Source: Anatilimnocola floriformis (lineage in GTDB: Bacteria; Planctomycetota; Planctomycetia; Pirellulales; Pirellulaceae). Taken from it: 64,000 nt of DNA. The position numbers and the translations under genes are program-made. The notes under the pieces are model-generated. The model ran no database searches. It saw only the letters and a program-made list of their open reading frames with translations, and was not told the DNA's origin. Each line of letters opens with the position of its first letter. Position 1 is the stretch's first letter. Below, in pieces: positions 51,566-62,387 of the stretch. The stretch is taken from NCBI RefSeq assembly GCF_024256385.1, contig NZ_JAMLFW010000001.1, positions 124,001 to 188,000 on the forward strand, in the 5' to 3' direction.

Positions 51566-51814
51566 ATTGTCGTCGAATACTCCGTATTCGATGGGTTGAC
51601 GTTAAACAGCAACTCCCCGAGGAATGAGCTCCGCGAAATTCCGGCGTTCGGCGAGTGGACGTGGAAGCTCTGAGATTGAAGCGCGAGTGCGTCGCGGTGG
51701 ATCACAAGCCGCTGCGAAATCAACTCGCCGAACTTGCTGGAATATCGCTGGCGCTGATTCCAGCGAGCCTCGGCTTTCGACCGCCACCACCGAATACGGA
51801 GTATTCGGCGACAT
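51566..51814. repeat. MITE-like repeat, complete copy A
   Basis: Terminal inverted repeats of about 29 bp lie at 51566-51594 (ATTGTCGTCGAATACTCCGT...) and 51787-51814 (CCACCGAATACGGAGTATTC..., two or three mismatches). The 249-bp element has no gene. Its interior AATGAGCTCCGCGAAATTCC and CTTGCTGGAATATCGCTGGC recur in the copy at 60708-60890. Confidence 0.8.
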
Positions 51815-51823
51815 AGCCGTCTT

Positions 51824-52174
51824 CTTACTCCCTCGCCTCGGTACTCCGGGGAGAGGGCTGGGGTGAGGGGGCTGGAAGTTTAGAGCGGCTCTATTTGGCA
51901 GATAGTTTTGCCAAATATCTCAGGAGATGCATTATGAGTTATTTCCTAATGGCAGCGTATTTATCGCGCTATTTAGTTGACAACCGTCCACTATGTCGCG
52001 AAAATTCAGGTCGTCCCATCAGCCGCCGGGCGCTAGCCCCCGGCTTCTTCTGCGAGTGAAGGTAAGAGCCGGGGGCTAGCGCCCGGCGGCTGATGGGACT
52101 GTGTTGAGATTAGGTCGATAGCGCTGCTAACCCCTCACCCCGGCCCTCTCCCGAGGCGGGGCGAGGGAGTGAAG
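51824..52174. repeat. Nested inverted-repeat cluster without genes
   Basis: About 45-bp arms at 51824-51870 (CTTACTCCCTCGCCTCGGTA...) and 52131-52174 (CCCCTCACCCCGGCCCTCTC...) are imperfect reverse complements. They enclose an AT-rich stretch (51890-52010) and the perfect hairpin at 52014-52098. With copy A this accounts for the gap 51554-52269. Confidence 0.7.
52014..52098. repeat. Perfect 31-bp inverted repeat
   Basis: TCCCATCAGCCGCCGGGCGC... at 52014-52044 and its exact reverse complement at 52068-52098, with a 23-nt loop. The GGGCGCTAGCCCCCGGC core is of a type dispersed in planctomycete genomes (from memory). It would form a very stable hairpin on either strand. Confidence 0.9.
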
Positions 52175-53312: not shown

Positions 53313-53411
53313 ATTGTCGTCGAATACTCCGTATTCGATGGTGGCGGTCGCAGGCAGTGGGCCGCTGGAATAAGCGTCAGCGAGGAATACAGAGTAGGCG
53401 AGGGTAGCCGT
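53313..53411. repeat. MITE-like repeat, shortened copy B
   Basis: The 29-bp end at 53313-53341 is identical to that of copy A. The interior is reduced to about 45 bp (GCCGCTGGAATAAGCGTCAG), and the right end (GGAATACAGAGTAGGCG...TAGCCG, to about 53411) is a degenerate form of A's right end. It starts 8 nt after the preceding gene. Confidence 0.7.
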
Positions 53412-54761
53412 TGTGAGCCGATGTCAGATTTTTTGAGGCATCTTCCCTTGCTTCAGTCCCCATAATCTCAGCGGCGAGGGGTGTTTCCTTCGCTGGGTTC
53501 GGCGTTCTGTCGCTGGCCCGAAATGAAAACGGCGAGAGTGAACGTTGACGCGTTCACCCCCGCCTGAACATCACTTGCGTATGGAGCAAGCAATGTCTGT
53601 CGTCGATTCTATGGGGCGAAGCTGCGCACCTGCAACGTCGTCTGAGTGGCTATCAATCGGGGAACTCAGCAGGAGATTCAAAGTGCATGTGAACACGGCG
53701 AGGAACGCGGCCAACGCGGGCAGGCTGCGAAGTTACCGGCTGAACGCGGCCAGCTTCGACGGCAAATCGCATCGCCGTTTCAAACTCGAAGACGTTCACG
53801 AATGGCTTGGCCTGACGGCTGTAGAGCAAGGGAGTTGTTCAGGCAACGATTCAAAGCCAACGGTGGTTCTCTGCGCCCGGGTGTCGAGCAGTGGCCAGAA
53901 AGAGGACTTGGCTAGGCAGGTTCAACGGTTAGAGGCGTACGCGAATGAACGATGGGGCGAGGACGGTTGCACCGTTCATAAGTACGTACGTATAGCATCA
54001 GGGCTGAATTACAACGCTCCTGGTCTGCTCTCGTTGGTTAACGACATTCTGAACGGCAAGCTGAACAACGCGTTCCTGGTCATCACTCACCGCGACCGGC
54101 TGATTAGGTTCGGGTTCAACCTGCTCAAGGCAATCTGCGAGACGAAGGGAATCCAGATTGTTCAAATCGAATCGGAAGAACCTAAGAGCCTGATAGATGA
54201 GCTGGTTGCCGACATTCTCTCGCTGAGCCAAGTGGCGAACATGAGCATCTACGGCCAACGCGGCAACAAAAACCGGGCGAGGTTTAGCGAAGTTCCTCAG
54301 GCCACATTCGACTTAATCTGTAACCTGAGAGCCAAGGGCGTGAGCGTGCGCGGCATTCACCGGCAACTTGAACAAGCCAAGGCCAACGTGTGTTCAGACG
54401 GCAAGACGTTCAGCATTCAGGTGGTGCGGCGAATTGCAAAAAGTGTGAACACCAACTCTCTTGCTAAACCGCAACGCGGGGCCGGGAGCTTCGACACATT
54501 CTTACGGGCCAAGCTCAGAGCAGGCGGGCCAGGTTCAAAGGTGAAGCGGTCCCGCATTCTCAAAGCGTACGCCGACTACTGCGAAGCGAATGGCGAACGA
54601 CGCGTAAGCCGGAAGCTATGCCTGGAAAAACTGAGTGAGCATGTTCGAAAACTAAATGTCTCGGTGACGGAAAACGGCGATTCGGTCCTGTACACAGGAC
54701 TCAACCTCATCCCGCACAGCGTCACAACGGCTTAACTGGTCATGTGAGCCGATGTTAGGTT
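53412..54761 (+). mobile_element. Putative IS607-like unit: serine recombinase between 19-bp direct repeats
   Basis: TGTGAGCCGATGTCAGATT at 53412-53430 and TGTGAGCCGATGTTAGGTT at 54743-54761 (17 of 19 identical) flank the recombinase. The left repeat begins where MITE copy B ends. A hairpin with 7-bp arms, GTGAACG-TTGACG-CGTTCAC, lies at 53538-53557. No tnpB is present. Confidence 0.5.
53593..54735 (+). CDS. IS607-type serine recombinase with primase-like C-terminal extension
   Basis: A 380-residue protein. Residues about 18-70 are a MerR-like HTH (SIGELSRRFKVHVNTARNAA). About 85-225 are a resolvase catalytic domain with the nucleophile Ser in CARVSSSGQKEDLARQVQRL and Arg in VITHRDRLIRFG. 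This HTH-first order is that of IS607 TnpA. The family normally ends near residue 200-230; here about 150 more residues follow, including PGSKVKRSRILKAYADYCEA and GERRVSRKLCLEKLSEHVRK, which resemble the winged helix at the end of P4/D5-type primases (inference). GGAG 6 nt before ATG 53593 decides the start. Confidence 0.85.
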   Translation: MSVVDSMGRSCAPATSSEWLSIGELSRRFKVHVNTARNAANAGRLRSYRLNAASFDGKSHRRFKLEDVHEWLGLTAVEQGSCSGNDSKPTVVLCARVSSSGQKEDLARQVQRLEAYANERWGEDGCTVHKYVRIASGLNYNAPGLLSLVNDILNGKLNNAFLVITHRDRLIRFGFNLLKAICETKGIQIVQIESEEPKSLIDELVADILSLSQVANMSIYGQRGNKNRARFSEVPQATFDLICNLRAKGVSVRGIHRQLEQAKANVCSDGKTFSIQVVRRIAKSVNTNSLAKPQRGAGSFDTFLRAKLRAGGPGSKVKRSRILKAYADYCEANGERRVSRKLCLEKLSEHVRKLNVSVTENGDSVLYTGLNLIPHSVTTA

Positions 54762-54969
54762 CTCTCTCGCAGCGATGGCTCAGCCACGCTGAAAATCGTT
54801 TCGAAGCCGTCCGCAGTGCAGGGGCACGGTTCGGCTGAGTGAGGCAAAAACGGGGAGCTTGTCGCGGCCAATCTACCCGGTTGACCGTTCGCTTCACCAG
54901 TCAGTGAAAACAACATGAGGTCATTCTGCATACTGCGGGATACCTTTTTTGTTGACTGCTGGCAATCTG

Positions 54970-55017: not shown

Positions 55018-55791
55018 ATGAGCGAAGGTGATGGTGGAATCAATGACTTGGCGGGTGTTGGCGAAGTGCTCAATTCTGAAGTGGCCAATAAGGCGTACGA
55101 CGATGGGCTATCCAACGCGATGAAATCGACGGGCGAGGGGCTAACCGATGTAGTCGATGGGCTGCGGTTATTCCTACTGCCGTTCAATTTGCTATCGATT
55201 GCTCGCGTGAGAATTCTTCGCTTTATGGGCATCGTGCGAAACGATGTTCCACCAGAGCGGCAAATCGAAGCAGCCCCAGAAATTGCCGGGCCGGTACTGG
55301 AAAAACTACGTTACCAGCGCGACGATGACCCGCTAACCGAGCTTTACTTGAATCTACTCAAGCGAGCGATTGACAAGGAGCGGCGCGACGAAGCGCATCC
55401 AGCATTTGCAAGTATCATCGCTCAGCTTAGCGCCGATGAAGCATTATTTCTCTATCGCGTATGGAAAATTGCGAAAGACCTGAGGCACTCCCGCTTGCCG
55501 TTATTTTTTCAGGCGAACTACCAGGGGACCGGACCATTCGGAAAGAACTTCGACTTGTACCTTACTCACCTGCGAGGGCTTACGTTACTTGAGCAGCCAG
55601 AGGTCAAGCTGCAACATCGCCAGCAAATTTACAGCGGCGGAATCGAGGATAGTGATTTTACCGGCATTCGCGTCGAACAAAAAATCAATCGCAATGAAAT
55701 CAAGTTGACTCCACTTGGCAGGCTGTTCTGTCAAGCGGTTTTACCTGACCAATTCCAGGGTGAAGAGGTCACCGAATCTTCGCCCGACTAA
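55018..55791 (+). CDS. Abi-alpha (DUF4393) family abortive-infection protein
   Basis: A 257-residue protein. After an acidic N-terminus comes GLTDVVDGLRLFLLPFNLLS, probably membrane-associating, then the family core: PEIAGPVLEKLRYQRDDDPL, ELYLNLLKRAIDKERRDEAH, PAFASIIAQLSADEALFLYR. This matches the DUF4393/Abi-alpha pattern (from memory of the family), linked to phage defence. A basic C-terminal domain ends in a winged-helix-like LTPLGRLFCQAVLPD. AAAGGGG lies 7 nt before the ATG. It converges on the TIR-like gene and their stops overlap by 4 nt. Confidence 0.78.
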   Translation: MSEGDGGINDLAGVGEVLNSEVANKAYDDGLSNAMKSTGEGLTDVVDGLRLFLLPFNLLSIARVRILRFMGIVRNDVPPERQIEAAPEIAGPVLEKLRYQRDDDPLTELYLNLLKRAIDKERRDEAHPAFASIIAQLSADEALFLYRVWKIAKDLRHSRLPLFFQANYQGTGPFGKNFDLYLTHLRGLTLLEQPEVKLQHRQQIYSGGIEDSDFTGIRVEQKINRNEIKLTPLGRLFCQAVLPDQFQGEEVTESSPD

Positions 55792-56735
55792 CAGGGAACC
55801 TTCCGAAATTTCGCAAATTGCGTCCCCAACTCATCCGGCATCAATACCCCGTTCGGTTTGGCGTCATTGGCAAAATGCCGAATTAATTTCACCAGCAGCG
55901 TGCCAAGTTCCTTGCTCTGGTAGAGAACTGTGTTGCTGTCCTGAAGCTTGATTTCAAACACGAACTCGCCAACCTGTTCATCGGTCAAAGGCTGTCGATG
56001 CGGGCCGATGCCAAGCAAGTGCTTGACCAAGAATGTCAAACTGTCTGCATTCGCCCCTTCCCAAATGAGGAGTGAGTGGTCACGAACCTGGGTAGAAAGT
56101 TGCTCGCCAGCTCTTGCTGCGTCAAACAGCGAAAACGAGTTACTCGGCCGATGCAGAGAGAGCGTGTGTGGCGGCAAAGGTTTGACGTCGCAATTCGTGA
56201 CCACCAAATGAAAGCCTATTCCGCTGCCATTGGCGAACCATGAGATTTGAAAGCCAAGGTCGTAGTACGGCGACTTCCGCAGGCCAAGCCGTTTTATCTC
56301 GTTCTCGATTGCCGTAGTTGCTGGGCCAAGCGCCGATTGCCAGTTGCCAGAGTCTGGCTTCTTGTACGCCGCTGGCGTTATTCCCGCCAAGTCGCTCGGC
56401 ATTTTCGCATTCGCATCTCGGTCGATAACGATGTAAACACGTTCGCGGCCAAGTTTGCCCATGAACAAGCCTAGTTCCAGAACCACGTTATCGCGCGGTG
56501 ACTTTTTCTCTTCACCCCGGCTGATGGTTAGGTCATCGGGAGTGAGGCAGAGAACTGCAAAATCGAACGCATCGACTTTGTTGACAAGCGTTTCCAGAGT
56601 TCCTTCGCTCAGTCCGAATAGGCCCTGCGACCAGATATGCGACTCGCAAGCGTACTCCAAGTTGGCCTGAATCGCCTTCGCCGCATTCAGACCTTCGGAT
56701 GATGAACCAATGAAAACATAGGGCTGCTTGGGCAT
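55788..56735 (-). CDS. TIR-like nucleotide-binding effector protein
   Basis: A 315-residue soluble protein. Residues 5-140 match the TIR-like domain of the CAP12/Pycsar-effector type (PF10137): VFIGSSSEGLNAAKAIQANL, LTPDDLTISRGEEKKSPRDN and NVVLELGLFMGKLGRERVYI. Glu87 is in the place of the NADase catalytic Glu. The C-terminal 170 residues are unlike STING or a membrane anchor and I do not recognise them; they may sense a trigger. Known relatives deplete NAD+ during phage infection. The start MPKQPYV follows AAAGGAA; a longer frame begins at 56891 without support. Confidence 0.82.
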   Translation of the reverse strand: MPKQPYVFIGSSSEGLNAAKAIQANLEYACESHIWSQGLFGLSEGTLETLVNKVDAFDFAVLCLTPDDLTISRGEEKKSPRDNVVLELGLFMGKLGRERVYIVIDRDANAKMPSDLAGITPAAYKKPDSGNWQSALGPATTAIENEIKRLGLRKSPYYDLGFQISWFANGSGIGFHLVVTNCDVKPLPPHTLSLHRPSNSFSLFDAARAGEQLSTQVRDHSLLIWEGANADSLTFLVKHLLGIGPHRQPLTDEQVGEFVFEIKLQDSNTVLYQSKELGTLLVKLIRHFANDAKPNGVLMPDELGTQFAKFRKVPC

Positions 56736-56816
56736 AGACTTGCGTTCCTTTGACGTTGTGAAACCCCTCATTCTAGCGTAGAGCGAGCGTGAGTTGGCGA
56801 GGGCTATTTTCGAACC

Positions 56817-56844
56817 TTGACAGGCTGAAAAACTGTGGTTCAAT
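56817..56844 (+). promoter_or_regulatory. Promoter of the small-membrane-protein operon
   Basis: TTGACA at 56817-56822, a 16-bp spacer and TTCAAT at 56839-56844 (4 of 6). It lies in the 136-bp region shared with the divergent TIR-like gene. Confidence 0.5.
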
Positions 56845-56871
56845 CGTACACACAGCAAAGGAGAACGCACC

Positions 56872-57171
56872 GTGAAATACCTAATTTGCATCCTGCTTCT
56901 GGTGATTGGAGCAGCGCTTTTGGGGGTTGGCTATTCCAACTACTCTGCTCTGGTTGCGCGCGAGAACTCGTGGAACGCGAATCAAGCCAAATTCGATGAA
57001 ACGAATTGGCAGCTGGCTCAAGCAATGGGAACGGAGTCCGGATGGAAGTCCGGGCCGAAAAAGGAGTTCGACAAAAATACGGCTGTTGTGACCCTTGGCA
57101 TCGGGGGAATCGCTTGCCTTATGGGATTGCTCGCGCTAGCCATTCCCGGCAGCAAAGCAGGCAACGCATGA
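56872..57171 (+). CDS. Small two-helix membrane protein
   Basis: A 99-residue protein with helices at about 2-22 (YLICILLLVIGAALLGVGYS) and 73-92 (VVTLGIGGIACLMGLLALAI) and a charged loop of about 50 residues between, rich in Trp, Asn and Lys. The start is GTG at 56872 with AAAGGAG upstream. Its stop overlaps the next start (ATGA). No family is recognised. Confidence 0.65.
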   Translation: MKYLICILLLVIGAALLGVGYSNYSALVARENSWNANQAKFDETNWQLAQAMGTESGWKSGPKKEFDKNTAVVTLGIGGIACLMGLLALAIPGSKAGNA

Positions 57172-57686
57172 AGGAGCCATCGCGGTTTCAACTCACCATT
57201 TGTACCACCTTTCTCGCTTGCGCCGCTCCTTTCATATTTTGGGGGATTGTCGCGGGAGTCATAGCCGGTTGCTCGCAAGGCAGGCCGCAAGCTAAATCTA
57301 TCGAGTTCAAACTCCAGAAAGAGATGCGGCAGTTATCAAATAACTGGGGCGGAGTTCACGCTGTAGCAGCTGACGACGGCAAACTGCTCAGCATCCGGAT
57401 AATGTATTCCCTGCCTAACGGTTACAAGTATTGCTTTCATGGCTCCCCGTATTGGGTTCCGCCAATGGTATCTGTTTACAATGCGACCAGTGACGCGGCG
57501 CTTTCCGAAGGCAGCTATGACACTCAAACTCAACTGATAGGTGGCTACTACTTCCATCCCGACGGAAAGGTAACGGAAGACGACTTTCATAAGAATCCGC
57601 CAATGTACGATTCAAAGAAGCTCAAAGAACTGCAAGCTGCGGCTGGTCAGTTGAATGCTGTTCTTGCAAAACTAATTGGCAAGTAG
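57168..57686 (+). CDS. Probable lipoprotein/secreted protein of unknown function
   Basis: A 172-residue protein. The N-terminal helix ends in FWGIVAGVIAGCSQG, so Cys35 is a possible lipidation site. The mature part (about 40-172) is beta-rich with a possible ligand-binding fold (GKLLSIRIMYSLPNGYKYCF). The start is fixed by ATGA overlap with the previous gene. Function unknown. Confidence 0.65.
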   Translation: MKEPSRFQLTICTTFLACAAPFIFWGIVAGVIAGCSQGRPQAKSIEFKLQKEMRQLSNNWGGVHAVAADDGKLLSIRIMYSLPNGYKYCFHGSPYWVPPMVSVYNATSDAALSEGSYDTQTQLIGGYYFHPDGKVTEDDFHKNPPMYDSKKLKELQAAAGQLNAVLAKLIGK

Positions 57687-57698
57687 AGAGATGCAACT

Positions 57699-57866
57699 AT
57701 GGCGATGACAACCTGCAAAGACTGCAAACGCGACATTAGTAGCCAGGCAATGAAATGTCCGCACTGTGGAGCTTCGACAGGCTACGCGCTCTTTGTGCTA
57801 GTGCTATTGATGGTCATTCTTGGTGGTGCTGCAATCATGATAGTTGTCGGCAACAATATGCGGTGA
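57699..57866 (+). CDS. 55-residue zinc-ribbon membrane protein
   Basis: A short gene: MAMTTCKDCKRDISSQAMKC, then PHCGAST, gives a CxxC-x10-CxxC zinc ribbon, followed by one membrane helix (YALFVLVLLMVILGGAAIMI) and a short tail. GAGAG lies 7 nt upstream. It is the third gene of the 56872 operon (12-nt gap). Ribbon-plus-helix proteins often act as small membrane adaptors. The promoter of the structured region begins at its stop codon. Confidence 0.7.
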   Translation: MAMTTCKDCKRDISSQAMKCPHCGASTGYALFVLVLLMVILGGAAIMIVVGNNMR

Positions 57867-57891
57867 CGTTTTAGCTGAGACAAGGTATAAT
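57863..57891 (+). promoter_or_regulatory. Promoter of the candidate large RNA
   Basis: GTGACG at 57863-57868 (4 of 6), a 17-bp spacer and a perfect TATAAT at 57886-57891; a second TATAAT overlaps at 57892-57897. Transcription would begin near 57898, just after the zinc-ribbon stop codon. Confidence 0.6.
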
Positions 57892-57897
57892 TATAAT

Positions 57898-59199
57898 AGC
57901 AAGCGATTGGACTGGTTGTCCCGTGCGGCTTGGCTTGTTCACTGATGAATGAGCGTTAAATATAGAACTGACGAATGGGTTATGCGTTACCGTTGCTTTG
58001 CCCGAACCAAAAAAAGTTTAACACGGGTGGGAAGATTGGCAGTTGAGTTTGTCGATGGTCCTACAGAAGAAAGTTCAGCCTATAGATTAAATGCTCAGTC
58101 CTGATTCCCGGCAATAGCGGGGAATGAGCTTAGAGAGTGTGCAAAACACTCGACAAGGGGGAGCCTCACAAACTCCGATGTTTACCCATCGCCAAAAAAC
58201 CTGCACTGATTAACGCTATCAACAGGTACTTGGAGCGGAGCAATCCGAAAGGCGAAAGAGAGTAAACAGGCTATCTGGTTCAACATGACTAGATTCGGCA
58301 AGTAATCAGACTGAAAGCAAATAATCACCTTCCTTGAGTCTCCTATACTCCAAGGGTAAAGCGGTGGTGCAGATATATCCCCCGTGCTGTATTCATCAGG
58401 CAGCACAAAAACCACGCTTAGCCCGCTCGGAGCAATCTGACGGGCTTTGTCGTTTTCAGAGGCAGTTAAAGCAAGGAAGATTCATCATTCGGCTTACTCG
58501 CCATCTACTCAATCCGTATACGGCAACTGAACAACTCACAGTAAGCACATCAGGCTAAGCCATATCTGATAAAGTGATGGGCTGAGTGATGCGGGACTTA
58601 ACAACTGAGCATTCTCTCTTGCTATACATTGCTTCGTTGTTTTCGCATTGACTATCTGACGGAATGCGATATTCGCCGCTTCGACTAGACGGGCGGCAAT
58701 CTACGGATAACGTATTGCTGTCGGTGAATCCCCGAATTGAAACAGGCGAGCTAAAGCCAGGCTTGGCGAGTGGTGACGTTCTTCATACGTTGTAATCGCG
58801 TAACCGGCTGCGATTAAAGTGAAATCGGGGAATTGGCATATTTCCCGAAATGAAATGCTTTTTAATCCGAATTGTATTCTCGCAGCAATCTGGCGACGAG
58901 CAACCACTTAGCCAGCCATAGCGAGTGAACAGGCCGAGTAAATATCGGAAGTTGCTTATTAAGCCTAGATGAGGTGTTTTCCAGCGACAATCTAAGCCGC
59001 TAAACGTGGTTCGTTTTTACGTTCCACCGCACTCGGCTTTTGATTCGGTGAAGATGAAAGAGAAGTGGTGTATATGAATACAGAGCGAATTAGCTCTTTG
59101 ACATAGCTCCGCGAATTGGCAATTACTTAACCAGCTTTGCTGATTCGCAACTTAGCTTGCCCTGCCCGCTGCCATAGGTGGGTGGGGCAGGCGAGTTTT
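57898..59199 (+). ncRNA. Candidate 1.3-kb structured non-coding RNA
   Basis: No frame here encodes a believable protein, yet local hairpins are dense: 58093-58129, 58135-58151 (GAGTGT/ACACTC), 58332-58355, 58361-58417 enclosing 58384-58406, 58420-58446 (AGCCCG/CGGGCT), 58514-58523, 58644-58668, 58675-58697, 58756-58767, 58794-58815 (AATCGC/GCGATT), 58826-58847, 58995-59038, 59082-59097, 59111-59148 and 59156-59199. The first can pair 57900-57904 with 57928-57932. A consensus-type promoter precedes it and an intrinsic terminator ends it. Size and ornateness recall GOLLD and ROOL RNAs of phages, but I cannot match a family. Confidence 0.55.
59156..59199 (+). terminator. Intrinsic terminator of the candidate RNA
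   Basis: CTTGCCCTGCCC pairs with GGGGCAGGCGAG (11 bp with one bulged C; loop about 19 nt) and TTTT follows. It separates the RNA from the four-gene operon that starts at 59222. Confidence 0.7.
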
Positions 59200-59221
59200 A
59201 AGAATTTTCGGAATCAACACA

Positions 59222-59446
59222 ATGAAAACAAGCAGGGAAATATTTCCAAGTCGTTCACAACTGCGTATTACACGAACGCAGATTATGAATGAGCTATACG
59301 ACAGAAGAGCGGGCTATACGCTCAGCTTTTTCGCAGCACTTTTTGGAATTACAAAGCGTTCCGCCGTGGCAATGTGGCGAGACGTGAAAGAACAACGAGA
59401 GGCAAGCACCAATGGCGAGAATAACAGCGGCGGAAGTAATAGCTAA
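59222..59446 (+). CDS. Small HTH-like protein
   Basis: A 74-residue basic protein. YTLSFFAALFGITKRSAVAM then WRDVKEQ resembles a helix-turn-helix, so it may bind DNA or the nearby RNA (inference). The ATG at 59222 lacks a clear ribosome site; an internal ATG at 59285 is possible. Its 3' end overlaps the next gene by 35 nt in another frame. Confidence 0.5.
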   Translation: MKTSREIFPSRSQLRITRTQIMNELYDRRAGYTLSFFAALFGITKRSAVAMWRDVKEQREASTNGENNSGGSNS

Positions 59447-59738
59447 TTGCACAGTGGCGCGCAATAGAGACGTTTTAACGGGTCCGAAAGAAAGCAATCA
59501 GGCAGCAACTGCAAGAGCGATGCTTAAACGCGGGCATTCAGAGCAAGAAGTAATCGCATTCCTGTTCAATCTGCCAAGCCAAGTGGAAATTGACGGGCTC
59601 AGAGCGAAGGAGCTGGCATCGAGCCCGCCAAACGCAGCTTGCAGCCGGGCAAACGCCAGCGAAGGCGAGCTGTTGCAGCTAAAGCGGAACTCCGTCCTGA
59701 AGTGGCTCAGAACGATAGCCAGCAAGAGGGACACCTAA
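59412..59738 (+). CDS. Small hypothetical protein
   Basis: A 108-residue helical, basic protein (MARITAAEVIANCTVARNRD...). No known family. GAGAGG lies about 10 nt before the ATG. Its stop overlaps the GNAT start by one base (TAATG). Low Cys, no membrane helix. Confidence 0.55.
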   Translation: MARITAAEVIANCTVARNRDVLTGPKESNQAATARAMLKRGHSEQEVIAFLFNLPSQVEIDGLRAKELASSPPNAACSRANASEGELLQLKRNSVLKWLRTIASKRDT

Positions 59739-60214
59739 TGAACGCAATCGCGAAATTTATCGGGGCGTTCGCGCCGCGAATGGAAATTCTGGACTATCGT
59801 GACGGTGGCAGTGACGAACCGACGCTGTTCTCTTGCTTATTCGACGGAACAGCCGTAGTTCTGTTGGCCGACGTTCCGCAATCGAAACACGATTCAATTG
59901 AAATCCGAATGTTCGGAATTGCCCCGAAGATGCAACGGCAGGGGCTCGGTCGCAGGCTCTTGAACGAGATAACTGCATGGGCGGATACAGAGCGGGTTGT
60001 GCTGAATTGCGAAGCGAAGCTAATCGACTTGGCGGCGTTCGACTTTACGCTGGCTGCGTACAACAAGCTGCTTTTGGAAGACGGAATGATTGGCAAACCG
60101 TTTGGCAACACCTTGAACGACTTTGATTGGAGCAACGTGCTGATTGAAAACCACGGCTTTGAACGTGGCAGAGGCTTGGAATTGAAAAGAGTTCCGCGCA
60201 AGAGCAATGAATAG
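59738..60214 (+). CDS. GNAT-family acetyltransferase
   Basis: A 158-residue protein with the GNAT core: SIEIRMFGIAPKMQRQGLGR, whose QRQGLGR is the acetyl-CoA pyrophosphate loop (motif A), then RLLNEITAWADTERVVLNCE. The C-terminal half is longer than minimal GNATs. The substrate is unknown; small-molecule, protein or tRNA-acetylating toxin roles all occur in the family. GAGGG is 8 nt before the ATG, and both ends overlap neighbouring genes. Confidence 0.72.
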   Translation: MNAIAKFIGAFAPRMEILDYRDGGSDEPTLFSCLFDGTAVVLLADVPQSKHDSIEIRMFGIAPKMQRQGLGRRLLNEITAWADTERVVLNCEAKLIDLAAFDFTLAAYNKLLLEDGMIGKPFGNTLNDFDWSNVLIENHGFERGRGLELKRVPRKSNE

Positions 60215-60446
60215 AGAATTTTACGAAGCGCTTGAGCAAGTGCTAACCGATGACGAATTGGCGGAAGCAGGAAAGAAGCAGCCGGAGATTAGCGATTGCG
60301 AACTTAACAAGCGATTGGATTACTGCAAGCGATACGAAGAGCACCTTAACCGCCGTGCTGCTGGAATCACCGAGCCATTCGACGACCGAGAGGCAAAGAA
60401 GAACACTTCCGCCGCATTCATTCAGTCACTCATCGATTCCAACTAA
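60207..60446 (+). CDS. Small acidic protein, last gene of the operon
   Basis: A 79-residue charged helical protein (MNREFYEALEQVLTDDELAE...) overlapping the GNAT gene by 8 nt. Size, acidity and position just after a GNAT could suit an antitoxin or phage-type accessory protein, but nothing proves this. An intrinsic terminator follows within 40 nt. Confidence 0.6.
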   Translation: MNREFYEALEQVLTDDELAEAGKKQPEISDCELNKRLDYCKRYEEHLNRRAAGITEPFDDREAKKNTSAAFIQSLIDSN

Positions 60447-60485
60447 GCGAAGGGCAATCTCTCGCCGCGTTAGCTTTGCTTAGGG

Positions 60486-60515
60486 GCCACGTTACTACAA
60501 GAGCGTGGCTTTTTT
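60486..60515 (+). terminator. Intrinsic terminator of the four-gene operon
   Basis: GCCACG and CGTGGC form a 6-bp stem with a 12-nt loop, followed by six T at 60510-60515. The remaining gene-free sequence to 60707 shows nothing distinctive. Confidence 0.85.
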
Positions 60516-60707
60516 CATTCGCTCAATCGGCTCAGCGGACTTGCTTAGCTGCGACTATCTGTTATTCGTGCGGGTCTGATTTTTGAAATTCGGCTTGTTC
60601 CATGTCTCAAGGTGGTTTCGCAGAATGCGTGCCTTGGAGTCCCGGCGAACGGCATTAAAAAAACACCCCCGGCAATTCCCGCGTAAAATCACTGTTCATC
60701 AAGAGTT

Positions 60708-60890
60708 GGCAGCGAAATTCCAGCAAGTTCGGCGAGGGGGAGTCGGCGGTTGTGTTGTTCCTCGATTGCGATTCCTCGATACGACTCCATTTTCACGATC
60801 GCGCGCCAAAGCCGGAATTTCGCGGAGCTCATTCCTTGGGGAGGTGCTGTTTGGCGTTAAGCCATCGAATACGGAGTATTCGACGACAAT
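60708..60890. repeat. MITE-like repeat, truncated copy C in reverse orientation
   Basis: The right end at 60862-60890 is the exact reverse complement of the 29-bp end of copies A and B. The inner GGAATTTCGCGGAGCTCATT and ATTCCAGCAAGTTCGGCGAG match the reverse complement of copy A. The other terminal repeat is missing, the match stopping near 60708. Confidence 0.8.
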
Positions 60891-60941: not shown

Positions 60942-62387
60942 ATGTATCCATGCCAACGAATCCGTTCGACGTGTCATTCTCGCCGCGACTTCTTGCAGCA
61001 AGCCGGGACCGGCTTTGGTGCGCTCGCGCTTACCGCGCTACTGAATAGTGGCGAGCTCGGCAACGCTCGCGCAGCTGAGCAGCAACCAGATAAGAGCCCC
61101 TTCGCGCCCAAGGCGACGCACTTTCCTGCCAAGGCGAAGAGTGTGATTTATCTGTACATGGACGGTGGGCCGAGCCAGGTCGATACGTTCGACCCCAAGC
61201 CGCGGCTGACCGCCGAGAACGGCAAACCGTTCGGTCTGAAGATGGAGCCGACGCAATTCAACAACAACGGCGCGACGCTCGGCAGCCCGTGGAAGTTCAA
61301 TCAATACGGCGACAGCGGTTTGCCGGTGAGCGACTTGTTTCCGCACATCGCCCAGCACGCCGACAAGCTCGCGGTCATTCGCTCGATGACCAGCGAGTTC
61401 CCTGAGCACACCTCGGCGAACTATTTCCTGCACACCGGCACCGGCGTGCAAGGCAGGCCGAGCATGGGGGCCTGGTTCGGCTACGGCCTCGGCAGCGAGT
61501 GTCGCGACCTGCCGGGCTTTGTGGTGATCAACGGCGGGCTGATTCCGCCGGGCGGCCTCGATTGCTTTAACAGTGGCTTCCTACCAGCCAGCTTTCAGGG
61601 CTCGGTGTTCGCCGCGCAGCAGCCGCCGGTTTCGAACATTCAACGGCTCGAAGCGACCGACAGTCTGCAGCGAAACAAGTTGTCGCTCCTTAAGCAACTC
61701 GATCAGCAGCTGCTGGAGCGGACCGGCCGTGCCGATGCGCTCGAATCAGCCGTCGCCAACTATGAGCTCGCTTATCGGATGCAAACCGTCGTGCCGGCGC
61801 TGATGGATCTCAAGGATGAAACAGCCGCGACGCAATCGATGTATGGGCTCGACAGCAAATACGGCCCGACGACAACGTTTGGGCGGCAGTGCTTGCTTGC
61901 ACGGCGGCTCGTTGAAAAAGGTGTCCGTTTTATCGAGCTCACTTGCCCCAGCCTTGGTCACGATCGCTGGGATCAGCACGGCGGTTTGAAGAAGGGGCAC
62001 GAAGACAACAGCCGTTGTGTTGATCAGCCGATTGCGGCGCTCCTCACCGATCTGCAGCAGCGCGGTTTGCTCGATAGCACGCTGGTAGTTTGGTCAGGCG
62101 AGTTTGGCCGCACGCCGTTTGCGCAGGGCTCCGATGGTCGCGATCACAATCCGTTCGGCTTCAGCCTGTGGCTGGCTGGCGGTGGCACGAAGGGGGGCAC
62201 TGTTTACGGCGCGACCGATGAATACGGTTATAAGGCGGTCGAAAATGCCTGCGAGATCCACGACCTGCACGCGACCATGCTGCACCTGATGGGCATGGAT
62301 CACACGCGCGTCACCTTCCGCTTCTCGGGCCGCGACATGCGACTGACCGATGTGAAGGGGCATGTGCTGAAGGATATTTGCGCGTAG
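60942..62387 (+). CDS. DUF1501 domain protein, Tat-exported
   Basis: A 481-residue DUF1501 protein. The Tat signal is SRRDFLQQAGTGFGALALTA. Core motifs: VIYLYMDGGPSQVDTFDPKP, RFIELTCPSLGHDRWDQHGG, LVVWSGEFGRTPFAQG, GRDHNPFGFSLWLAGGG and HDLHATMLHLMGMDHTRVTF. It is closely similar in plan to the 23586 protein. No DUF1549/DUF1553 partner is in the window. The ATG at 60942 follows AGGAG at an unusually long 16 nt. Confidence 0.9.
   Translation: MYPCQRIRSTCHSRRDFLQQAGTGFGALALTALLNSGELGNARAAEQQPDKSPFAPKATHFPAKAKSVIYLYMDGGPSQVDTFDPKPRLTAENGKPFGLKMEPTQFNNNGATLGSPWKFNQYGDSGLPVSDLFPHIAQHADKLAVIRSMTSEFPEHTSANYFLHTGTGVQGRPSMGAWFGYGLGSECRDLPGFVVINGGLIPPGGLDCFNSGFLPASFQGSVFAAQQPPVSNIQRLEATDSLQRNKLSLLKQLDQQLLERTGRADALESAVANYELAYRMQTVVPALMDLKDETAATQSMYGLDSKYGPTTTFGRQCLLARRLVEKGVRFIELTCPSLGHDRWDQHGGLKKGHEDNSRCVDQPIAALLTDLQQRGLLDSTLVVWSGEFGRTPFAQGSDGRDHNPFGFSLWLAGGGTKGGTVYGATDEYGYKAVENACEIHDLHATMLHLMGMDHTRVTFRFSGRDMRLTDVKGHVLKDICA

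What the first reader, a model, noticed from the sequence alone, without database searches (positions are those of the whole stretch)
57863..59199. A 1.3-kb gene-free stretch that looks like a large ornate non-coding RNA
Seen: no credible frame over 1,300 nt, about 18 local stems of 5-12 bp in the + direction, several nested, a TATAAT promoter directly before and an intrinsic terminator directly after. Known: very large structured bacterial RNAs (GOLLD, ROOL, OLE) are rare, often phage-linked and lie near small unknown genes. Inference: this is a member or a new class of such RNAs, carried on an accessory island of a planctomycete.
Basis: partly seen in the sequence, partly recalled or inferred. 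Interest (0 to 1): 0.87.

Follow-up and report, generated by a model that had tools for sequence, protein, structure and literature searches.

The report
New large structured bacterial RNA
A gene-free stretch in a bacterial genetic island most likely makes a long, elaborately folded RNA of a kind not yet catalogued; its first 560 letters also occur, with compensating changes, in an island of a related species, but its job is unknown.

Summary
The gene-free stretch is real, and at least its first 560 nt look like a structured RNA. No frame beats chance; the + strand of 57898-59199 folds better than shuffles (z -6.1). A same-genus genome, G001, carries a relative in an island at another place: 74% identity over 57897-58385, alignable to about 58460. 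On that pair a 135-pair fold has no broken pair, 12 two-sided and 17 one-sided compensations, and an energy z of -7.7 against shuffled alignments. A second domain (58463-58630) is shared but diverged; 58631-59199 has no comparative support, so '1.3-kb RNA' is only partly confirmed. No Rfam family matches. In both islands the RNA heads four small genes (helix-turn-helix-like, unknown, GNAT, unknown) and is better conserved (75% nt) than they are (28-45% aa). Searches found RNA and module in these two genomes only. Best reading: a stand-alone RNA, possibly a new class, on a mobile, defence-linked island. Main rival: a long cis-acting leader. No transcript has been seen.

The parts
57863..57891 (+). 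promoter-like site: GTGACG (57863-57868), 17-nt spacer, TATAAT (57886-57891); start of RNA expected near 57898
   Evidence: 10 of 12 matches; not more than chance on its own. TTAGCTGAGAC.AGGTA.AAT is conserved in G001 once its IS5-family insert is set aside
57898..58460 (+). 5' domain of the RNA: conserved, multi-branched
   Evidence: 74% nt identity to L003 over 57897-58385; 135 consensus pairs, 0 broken, 12 two-sided and 17 one-sided changes; alignment energy z -7.7, -8.4 with local shuffles; single-sequence z -3.3 here, -7.1 in G001
57936..57955 (+). 5' strand of the long-range helix that closes the 5' domain (partner 58383-58405); 17 pairs, 2 changed on both sides
   Evidence: helices 2 and 3
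58149..58272 (+). most conserved core: hairpin GGAG/CUCC changed to GCAA/UUGU around a near-constant loop, then a UGUUUACC/GAGUAAACA helix enclosing two hairpins; used for covariance model R1
58383..58405 (+). 3' strand of the closing helix of the 5' domain
   Evidence: helices 2 and 3
58414..58453 (+). hairpin at the end of the 5' domain (AGCCCG/CGGGCU; AACCCC/GGGGUU in G001), terminator-like by eye but with a broken U tract
   Evidence: helix 21: 13 pairs, 3 changed on both sides; not listed by the terminator scan
58463..58630 (+). second domain, homologous but diverged (L003:11388-11546), apparently closed by AGCAAG 58470-58475 with CUUGCU 58618-58623 (by eye)
   Evidence: z -3.3; two-sided changes not above shuffles; single-sequence z -1.8 on both strands
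58631..59149 (+). gene-free 3' part without comparative support
   Evidence: 58631-59150: z -2.8 on + and -1.7 on -; no demonstrable match to G001
59150..59196 (+). very stable hairpin followed by UUUU; possible terminator or attenuator before the genes
   Evidence: z -5.1; not listed by the terminator scan
59222..59446 (+). ORF1, 74 aa, three-helix, helix-turn-helix-like protein
   Evidence: homologue in G001, 28% aa; model pLDDT 83.8; PDB matches weak, best E 0.46; no Pfam, PHROG, PADLOC or NCBIfam family
59412..59738 (+). ORF2, 108 aa, unknown
   Evidence: homologue in G001, 45% aa over 76 columns, with an in-frame TGA there; only a sub-threshold Pfam match, RepB_primase_C, E 0.089, 13.1 of 26.1 bits
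59738..60214 (+). GNAT-type acetyltransferase
   Evidence: PF00583 3e-6; homologue in G001, 34% aa
60207..60446 (+). ORF4, 79 aa, unknown
   Evidence: homologue in G001, 31% aa over 59 columns, BLASTP 4e-8 for the single comparison; weak PHROG match phrog_5410, E 0.0035

Best explanation
The region encodes a large structured RNA, transcribed on the + strand from the promoter at 57863-57891. It has a 560-nt 5' domain closed by a long-range helix and a diverged second domain, together about 730 nt, possibly up to 1.3 kb. It acts as an RNA in trans, as a scaffold in an RNA-protein or RNA-only assembly, and not as a message. It is the core of a five-part module (RNA, helix-turn-helix-like protein, unknown, GNAT, unknown) carried on mobile islands beside anti-phage genes. 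The downstream proteins are probably made by read-through of the same transcript and may bind the RNA or modify its partners. Shown: 5' domain non-coding, structured, conserved with compensation; module order kept at two chromosomal places. Inferred: transcription, full length, trans action, any link to defence.
For: No codon phase, 13 of 14 gap runs not multiples of three, chance-length frames. Consensus fold of 135 pairs, 0 broken, 12 two-sided and 17 one-sided changes; 0 of 500 partner shuffles reach it and sliding the partners destroys it; energy z -7.7. Substitutions in 41 of 270 paired and 99 of 274 unpaired positions (the fold came from the same alignment). The 5' domain is 75% identical in nt; ORF1, ORF2 and GNAT are 40-47% in nt and 28-45% in aa. 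RNA, ORF2 and GNAT give strong matches in the same 2 genomes, and no others, among 240-241 of the family (profiles of ORF2, GNAT and the RNA core were built from these two). The promoter region is conserved. Foldedness exceeds coding and intergenic controls.
Against: Only two sequences, of one genus. No transcript data. The number of two-sided changes alone is not exceptional against refolded shuffled alignments (12 against 7.9 +/- 2.8, reached in 20 of 200; 4 of 100 with local shuffles). The - strand of the alignment also scores z -4.5, and a coding control's - strand -3.0. The RNA lies directly ahead of a co-directional gene run with no promoter-like site listed in between, as a cis leader would. 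In G001 an IS5-family insertion splits the promoter and ORF2 has an in-frame TGA, so that copy may be decaying. A 144-aa frame covers the 3' part in G001; 5 of 300 mononucleotide shuffles match its length, so that part may be coding there.
Confidence: 0.57

Rival explanations
1. Cis-acting leader. The structured region is a very long 5' leader of the ORF1-ORF4 message, in which the stable hairpin at 59150-59196 (and perhaps that at 58414-58453) acts as a conditional terminator.
For: Same strand and same order ahead of ORF1 in both islands; ORF1 starts about 25 nt after the hairpin in the window; no promoter-like site is listed between hairpin and ORF1.
Against: Some 730-1,300 nt is longer than the leaders I know of (recalled). 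I see no such hairpin before ORF1 in G001. A weak His_leader match in G001 (E 0.21, 24.8 bits against a gathering score of 49) is absent in the window.
Confidence: 0.25
2. Replication, transfer or packaging RNA of a mobile element: the RNA serves the movement or copying of the island, such as a primer or packaging RNA.
For: Island context: an IS607-family element beside it here (NF033518; second copy in the genome, 99% over 1,464 bp) and two copies, 99.9% identical over 1,431 bp, flanking the cassette in G001; GC of 46-47% against about 55-63% at 50.0-53.5 and 61-64 kb. ORF2 has a sub-threshold RepB_primase_C match (E 0.089).
Against: The IS has moved alone: its second copy in G000 lacks the RNA, which occurs once. 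No replication or packaging family passes its cut-off among the island proteins tested.
Confidence: 0.08
3. Member of GOLLD, ROOL, OLE, raiA or a group I/II intron, too diverged to be seen.
For: Similar size and multi-branched shape; mobile, defence-linked setting.
Against: No match at gathering score or at E<=10 in either copy; no tRNA; no phage match by blastn.
Confidence: 0.05
4. Decayed genes or non-functional AT-richer DNA with fortuitous folds.
For: In G001 the copy carries an insertion in the promoter and a stop in ORF2; the 3' part is not demonstrably conserved.
Against: The 5' domain is the best-conserved part of the module, with compensation and no reading-frame signal.
Confidence: 0.05

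Closest known systems
ROOL RNA
   Same: Length class (659 nt for env-120), complex predicted structure, carried by mobile elements (passages of PMC12286853)
   Different: No match to Rfam models; no tRNA or phage setting found
GOLLD RNA
   Same: Many members over 800 nt; one region conserved and the other less so (passages of PMC12286853)
   Different: In GOLLD the 3' region is the conserved one; here it is the 5' region. No Rfam match
OLE RNA
   Same: Large ornate RNA with known protein partners (OapB and OapC, from reference titles in PMC12286853)
   Different: No Rfam match; neighbours here are a helix-turn-helix-like protein and a GNAT, not Oap proteins (nature of Oap proteins recalled)
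IS607 TnpB-linked guide RNAs
   Same: An IS607-family recombinase lies nearby
   Different: No TnpB-like match among the island proteins tested; the RNA lies outside the IS

Membership tests
GOLLD / ROOL / OLE | Match to the family's covariance model at gathering score | tested here: not met
   Searches (gathering; E<=10): none of the three in either copy; presence of the models in Rfam 15 is recalled
GOLLD / ROOL / OLE | Large, multi-branched RNA structure supported by covariation | tested here: met
   for 57898-58460 only and on two sequences
GOLLD / ROOL | Location in phage or prophage, often near tRNA islands | tested here: inconclusive
   no tRNA in the 64-kb window or in L003; no blastn match in 50,697 phage records; a prophage of an unknown phage is not excluded
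GOLLD / ROOL / OLE | Homo-oligomeric RNA assembly | not testable with these tools
   needs native gel or cryo-EM
raiA motif, group I and group II introns | Match to Rfam model | tested here: not met
   presence of the models is recalled
Type III toxin-antitoxin RNA | Tandemly repeated RNA antitoxin | tested here: not met
   no tandem repeat in 57000-60600 at score 30 or more
Cis-acting leader | Same-strand position directly ahead of a gene it controls | tested here: inconclusive
   position met in both islands; control of the genes not testable here
IS607 family transposase (neighbour at 53545-54735) | NCBIfam equivalog cut-off | tested here: met
   NF033518, 132.7 bits against cut-off 110

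The most novel reading that the evidence does not exclude
A founding pair of a new class of large RNA carried by a defence-linked mobile module, in which the RNA, not the proteins, is the slowest-evolving and working part; it may build an RNA-only or RNA-protein assembly with the co-encoded helix-turn-helix-like protein and acetyltransferase.
Probability: 0.4. Interest if true: 0.82.

Novelty: new variant of a known kind. Interest (0 to 1): 0.62.

Why it matters
The functions of GOLLD, ROOL and OLE remain poorly understood (PMC12286853, passages). Another class of large RNA, in what looks like a planctomycete and beside anti-phage genes, would widen the hosts and settings of such RNAs. The fixed set of four small genes behind it gives concrete candidate protein partners, which ROOL lacks according to that paper. 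The compensated helices give a fold that can be probed directly.

Tried and rejected
More homologues of the RNA and its module. (1) blastn: 2 of 98 relatives, 2 of 241 family genomes, 1 of 392 drawn from the phylum, own genome included each time; the sets overlap. (2) Covariance model R1 of the core, run with the tool's stricter filters: 2 of 397 from the class and 2 of 240 from the family at E about 1e-41, the two it was built from. Weaker rows: 5 of 397 at E 0.33-0.71 and 3 of 240 at E 0.004-0.029. I viewed seven of these eight as alignments (the G158 match was given no locus). They have non-standard pairs and several skip parts of the model, and a per-genome E of 0.004 is expected about once in 240 genomes, so I set all eight aside as chance. 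(3) ORF2 profile: 2 of 241 strong; 18 weak at E 0.003-0.1, of which only two loci were looked at further, with R1, without a match. (4) GNAT profile: 2 of 240 at E<=1e-6. (5) IMG/VR: six patterns gave 79, 0, 16, 0, 1 and 4 stretches. Checked by blastn, nhmmer or, for 12 loci, R1, they show only short local matches (best nhmmer E 0.0055, best R1 E 0.008, in loci chosen for holding part of the motif), taken as chance. Two protein queries gave 28 and 35 pattern stretches, none confirmed by tblastn. (6) genome contigs: ORF2 profile 71 pattern stretches, none confirmed; one RNA pattern 14 stretches, best nhmmer E 0.98. (7) Phages and plasmids: no blastn match for the RNA; ORF2 tblastn none in either; GNAT, phages only, 4 records at E 8e-3 over 24% of the query.

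Empty site: the best G001 match of the right-hand gene (87% identity; DUF1501-like from recall, not scanned) lies at another locus, in a 15-kb stretch without the three left-hand neighbours, so the island's ends could not be fixed. G001's 3' part compared as peptide with the window: no match of note to its 144-aa frame. GNAT model: pLDDT 68, no fold search made. Literature: five searches listed no paper that I recognised as describing this RNA; passages of PMC12286853 and PMC2864571 were read, the rest seen as listings. In the passage seen, PMC2864571 lists a planctomycete motif, Rhodopirellula-1, without an Rfam number; I could not test against it.

Full report
What is there. The window is G000:C1:124001-188000 of an 8.93-Mb genome. 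It is unnamed; a planctomycete is inferred from the 162 matches of the DUF1501-like protein in its congener G001 (both the family name and its link to planctomycetes are recalled). Over 57.5-59.5 kb GC is 46-47%, against about 55-63% at 50.0-53.5 and 61-64 kb. The stretch 57898-59199 has no frame longer than chance (99 codons against 98.8 +/- 22 in 200 mononucleotide shuffles) and no tandem repeat.

Foldedness. On the + strand the 1,302 nt reach -440.4 kcal/mol against -389.5 +/- 8.4 in 60 dinucleotide shuffles (z -6.1); the - strand gives z -2.2. Much of the excess lies in the last hairpin: without it z is -3.8. The 5' 563 nt alone have z -3.3 on + and -1.2 on -; the relative in G001 has -7.1 and -2.5. 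Three coding controls, both strands, lie between +0.3 and -1.1, and three intergenic controls between +0.4 and -0.8.

The relative. blastn finds one other copy, in a same-genus genome G001: 74% over window 57897-58385, alignable to about 58460. Mismatches by codon position are 43, 46 and 51 of 181-182 each (p 0.62), and 13 of 14 gap runs are not multiples of three: not a protein gene. RNAalifold gives 135 pairs, -117.75 kcal/mol, 12 pairs changed on both sides; of the rest 17 are changed on one side, 106 unchanged, none broken. Against 200 column-shuffled alignments that keep the pattern of matches and gaps, the energy z is -7.7. With local shuffles it is -8.4, while a 75%-identical coding stretch gives -0.6; on the - strand the two values are -4.5 and -3.0. 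Against refolded shuffles the count of two-sided changes is not exceptional by itself (12 against 7.9, reached in 20 of 200; 4 of 100). With the structure held fixed, 0 of 500 partner shuffles reach it, and sliding the partners by 1-3 columns leaves 35-42% of cells paired against 100% (the structure came from the same alignment, so this control leans its way). The clearest cases: hairpin GGAG/CUCC becomes GCAA/UUGU around a near-constant loop; the hairpin at 58414-58453 goes from AGCCCG/CGGGCU to AACCCC/GGGGUU; the closing helix 57936-57955/58383-58405 has two double changes.

How long is it? After 58460 similarity drops, but local alignment of the remainder still beats 300 of 300 shuffles under one scoring scheme and 296 and 297 of 300 under two others. 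A second domain, 58463-58630 against L003:11388-11546, seems closed by AGCAAG/CUUGCU here and AGCAGGGAA/UUCCCUGCU there (alignment z -3.3, two-sided changes not above shuffles; single-sequence z only -1.8 and -1.9 on +, no better than on -). Beyond 58630 nothing is demonstrably shared: aligned as a whole, 58630-59221 gives z -2.2 at 44% identity. There G001 has a 144-aa frame whose length 5 of 300 shuffles match (no Pfam match); it may be a gene. So the RNA is at least 560 nt, probably 730 nt, and up to 1.3 kb only by inference.

Promoter. GTGACG-N17-TATAAT fits 10 of 12, but such sites are as common in shuffles. In G001 an IS5-family element (DDE_Tnp_1 and DUF4096), 916 bp between CTAG repeats, lies just upstream of the RNA. 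With its flanks joined, TTAGCTGAGAC.AGGTA.AAT matches the window promoter, and 0 of 500 shuffles score as high for the upstream piece. By eye, TTTACC-N17-TAAAAT then appears at the same place. The element therefore seems to split the promoter of the G001 copy.

Module and island. In both islands the RNA is followed on the same strand by ORF1, ORF2, a GNAT and ORF4. Identities are 40% nt and 28% aa (ORF1), 47% and 45% (ORF2, 3' part), 44% and 34% (GNAT), and 31% aa over 59 columns (ORF4). The RNA's 5' domain is 75% identical in nt, the TIR gene 58%, so the RNA is the best-conserved of the parts compared. ORF1 is predicted as a three-helix, helix-turn-helix-like protein (pLDDT 83.8; best PDB match E 0.46). 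Upstream in the window lie an IS607-family element (53313-54776), an Abi_alpha protein (PF14337) and a CAP12/Pycsar-type TIR protein (PF10137); in G001 an AbiJ-like protein and a TIR protein. The IS607-family unit is a separate element: a second copy, 99% over 1,464 bp, lies elsewhere in G000, and in G001 two copies, 99.9% identical over 1,431 bp, flank the cassette. In the family the RNA, ORF2 and GNAT give strong matches in the same two genomes of 240-241 and no others, within capped candidate lists per genome.

Reading. The slow evolution of the RNA beside fast-evolving proteins, the compensated fold and the absence of coding signal favour an RNA that works as RNA. I favour trans action (0.57) over a cis leader (0.25) because of its size, and because I do not see the window's stable hairpin before ORF1 in G001, where a conserved attenuator would be expected. 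The position directly ahead of the gene run keeps the leader alive. Any role in defence is inferred from neighbourhood only.

Known families. No Rfam 15 family reaches its gathering score in window or L003. At E<=10 the window stretch gives two CRISPR repeats and a viral pseudoknot, and G001 gives His_leader (24.8 bits against 49) and a viral pseudoknot, all read as chance. GOLLD and ROOL are phage- or prophage-borne, often near tRNA islands, and form RNA-only cages (PMC12286853, passages); neither setting is seen here. Membership is therefore not claimed; 'works like' remains possible.

Noticed in passing
window 52013-52099: Perfect 33-bp inverted repeat with 21-nt spacer; the 150-nt stretch from 52001 is extremely stable on both strands (z -10.8 and -12.3).
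   Followed up: no
window 51566-51813, 53313-53383, 60808-60890; L016 9438-9620: Dispersed repeat around CCATCGAATACGGAGTATTCGACGACAAT, in both orientations, on both sides of the island and beside the second IS copy in G000.
   Followed up: partly
window 53313-54776; L016 9614-11077; L003 5470-6900 and 13558-14988; L017 10037-11426: IS607-family element without a recognised TnpB: a 99% second copy in G000, two 99.9% identical direct copies flanking the G001 cassette like a composite transposon, and in G001 a third, 69% identical to the window's.
   Followed up: partly
window 55018-56891; L003 7108-9057: Convergent pair of an abortive-infection-like gene (Abi_alpha here, AbiJ-like in G001) and a CAP12/Pycsar-type TIR gene; no cyclase was recognised among the proteins tested.
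   Followed up: partly
L003 9874-10789: IS5-family insertion between CTAG repeats inside the RNA's promoter in G001.
   Followed up: yes
L003 12224-12565: G001's ORF2 has one in-frame TGA, by eye after about 31 codons.
   Followed up: no
L003 11601-12035: 144-aa frame over the 3' part of the G001 region; 5 of 300 shuffles match its length; no Pfam match.
   Followed up: partly
G001 whole genome: 162 matches to the DUF1501-like protein (name recalled) of window 60942-62387.
   Followed up: no
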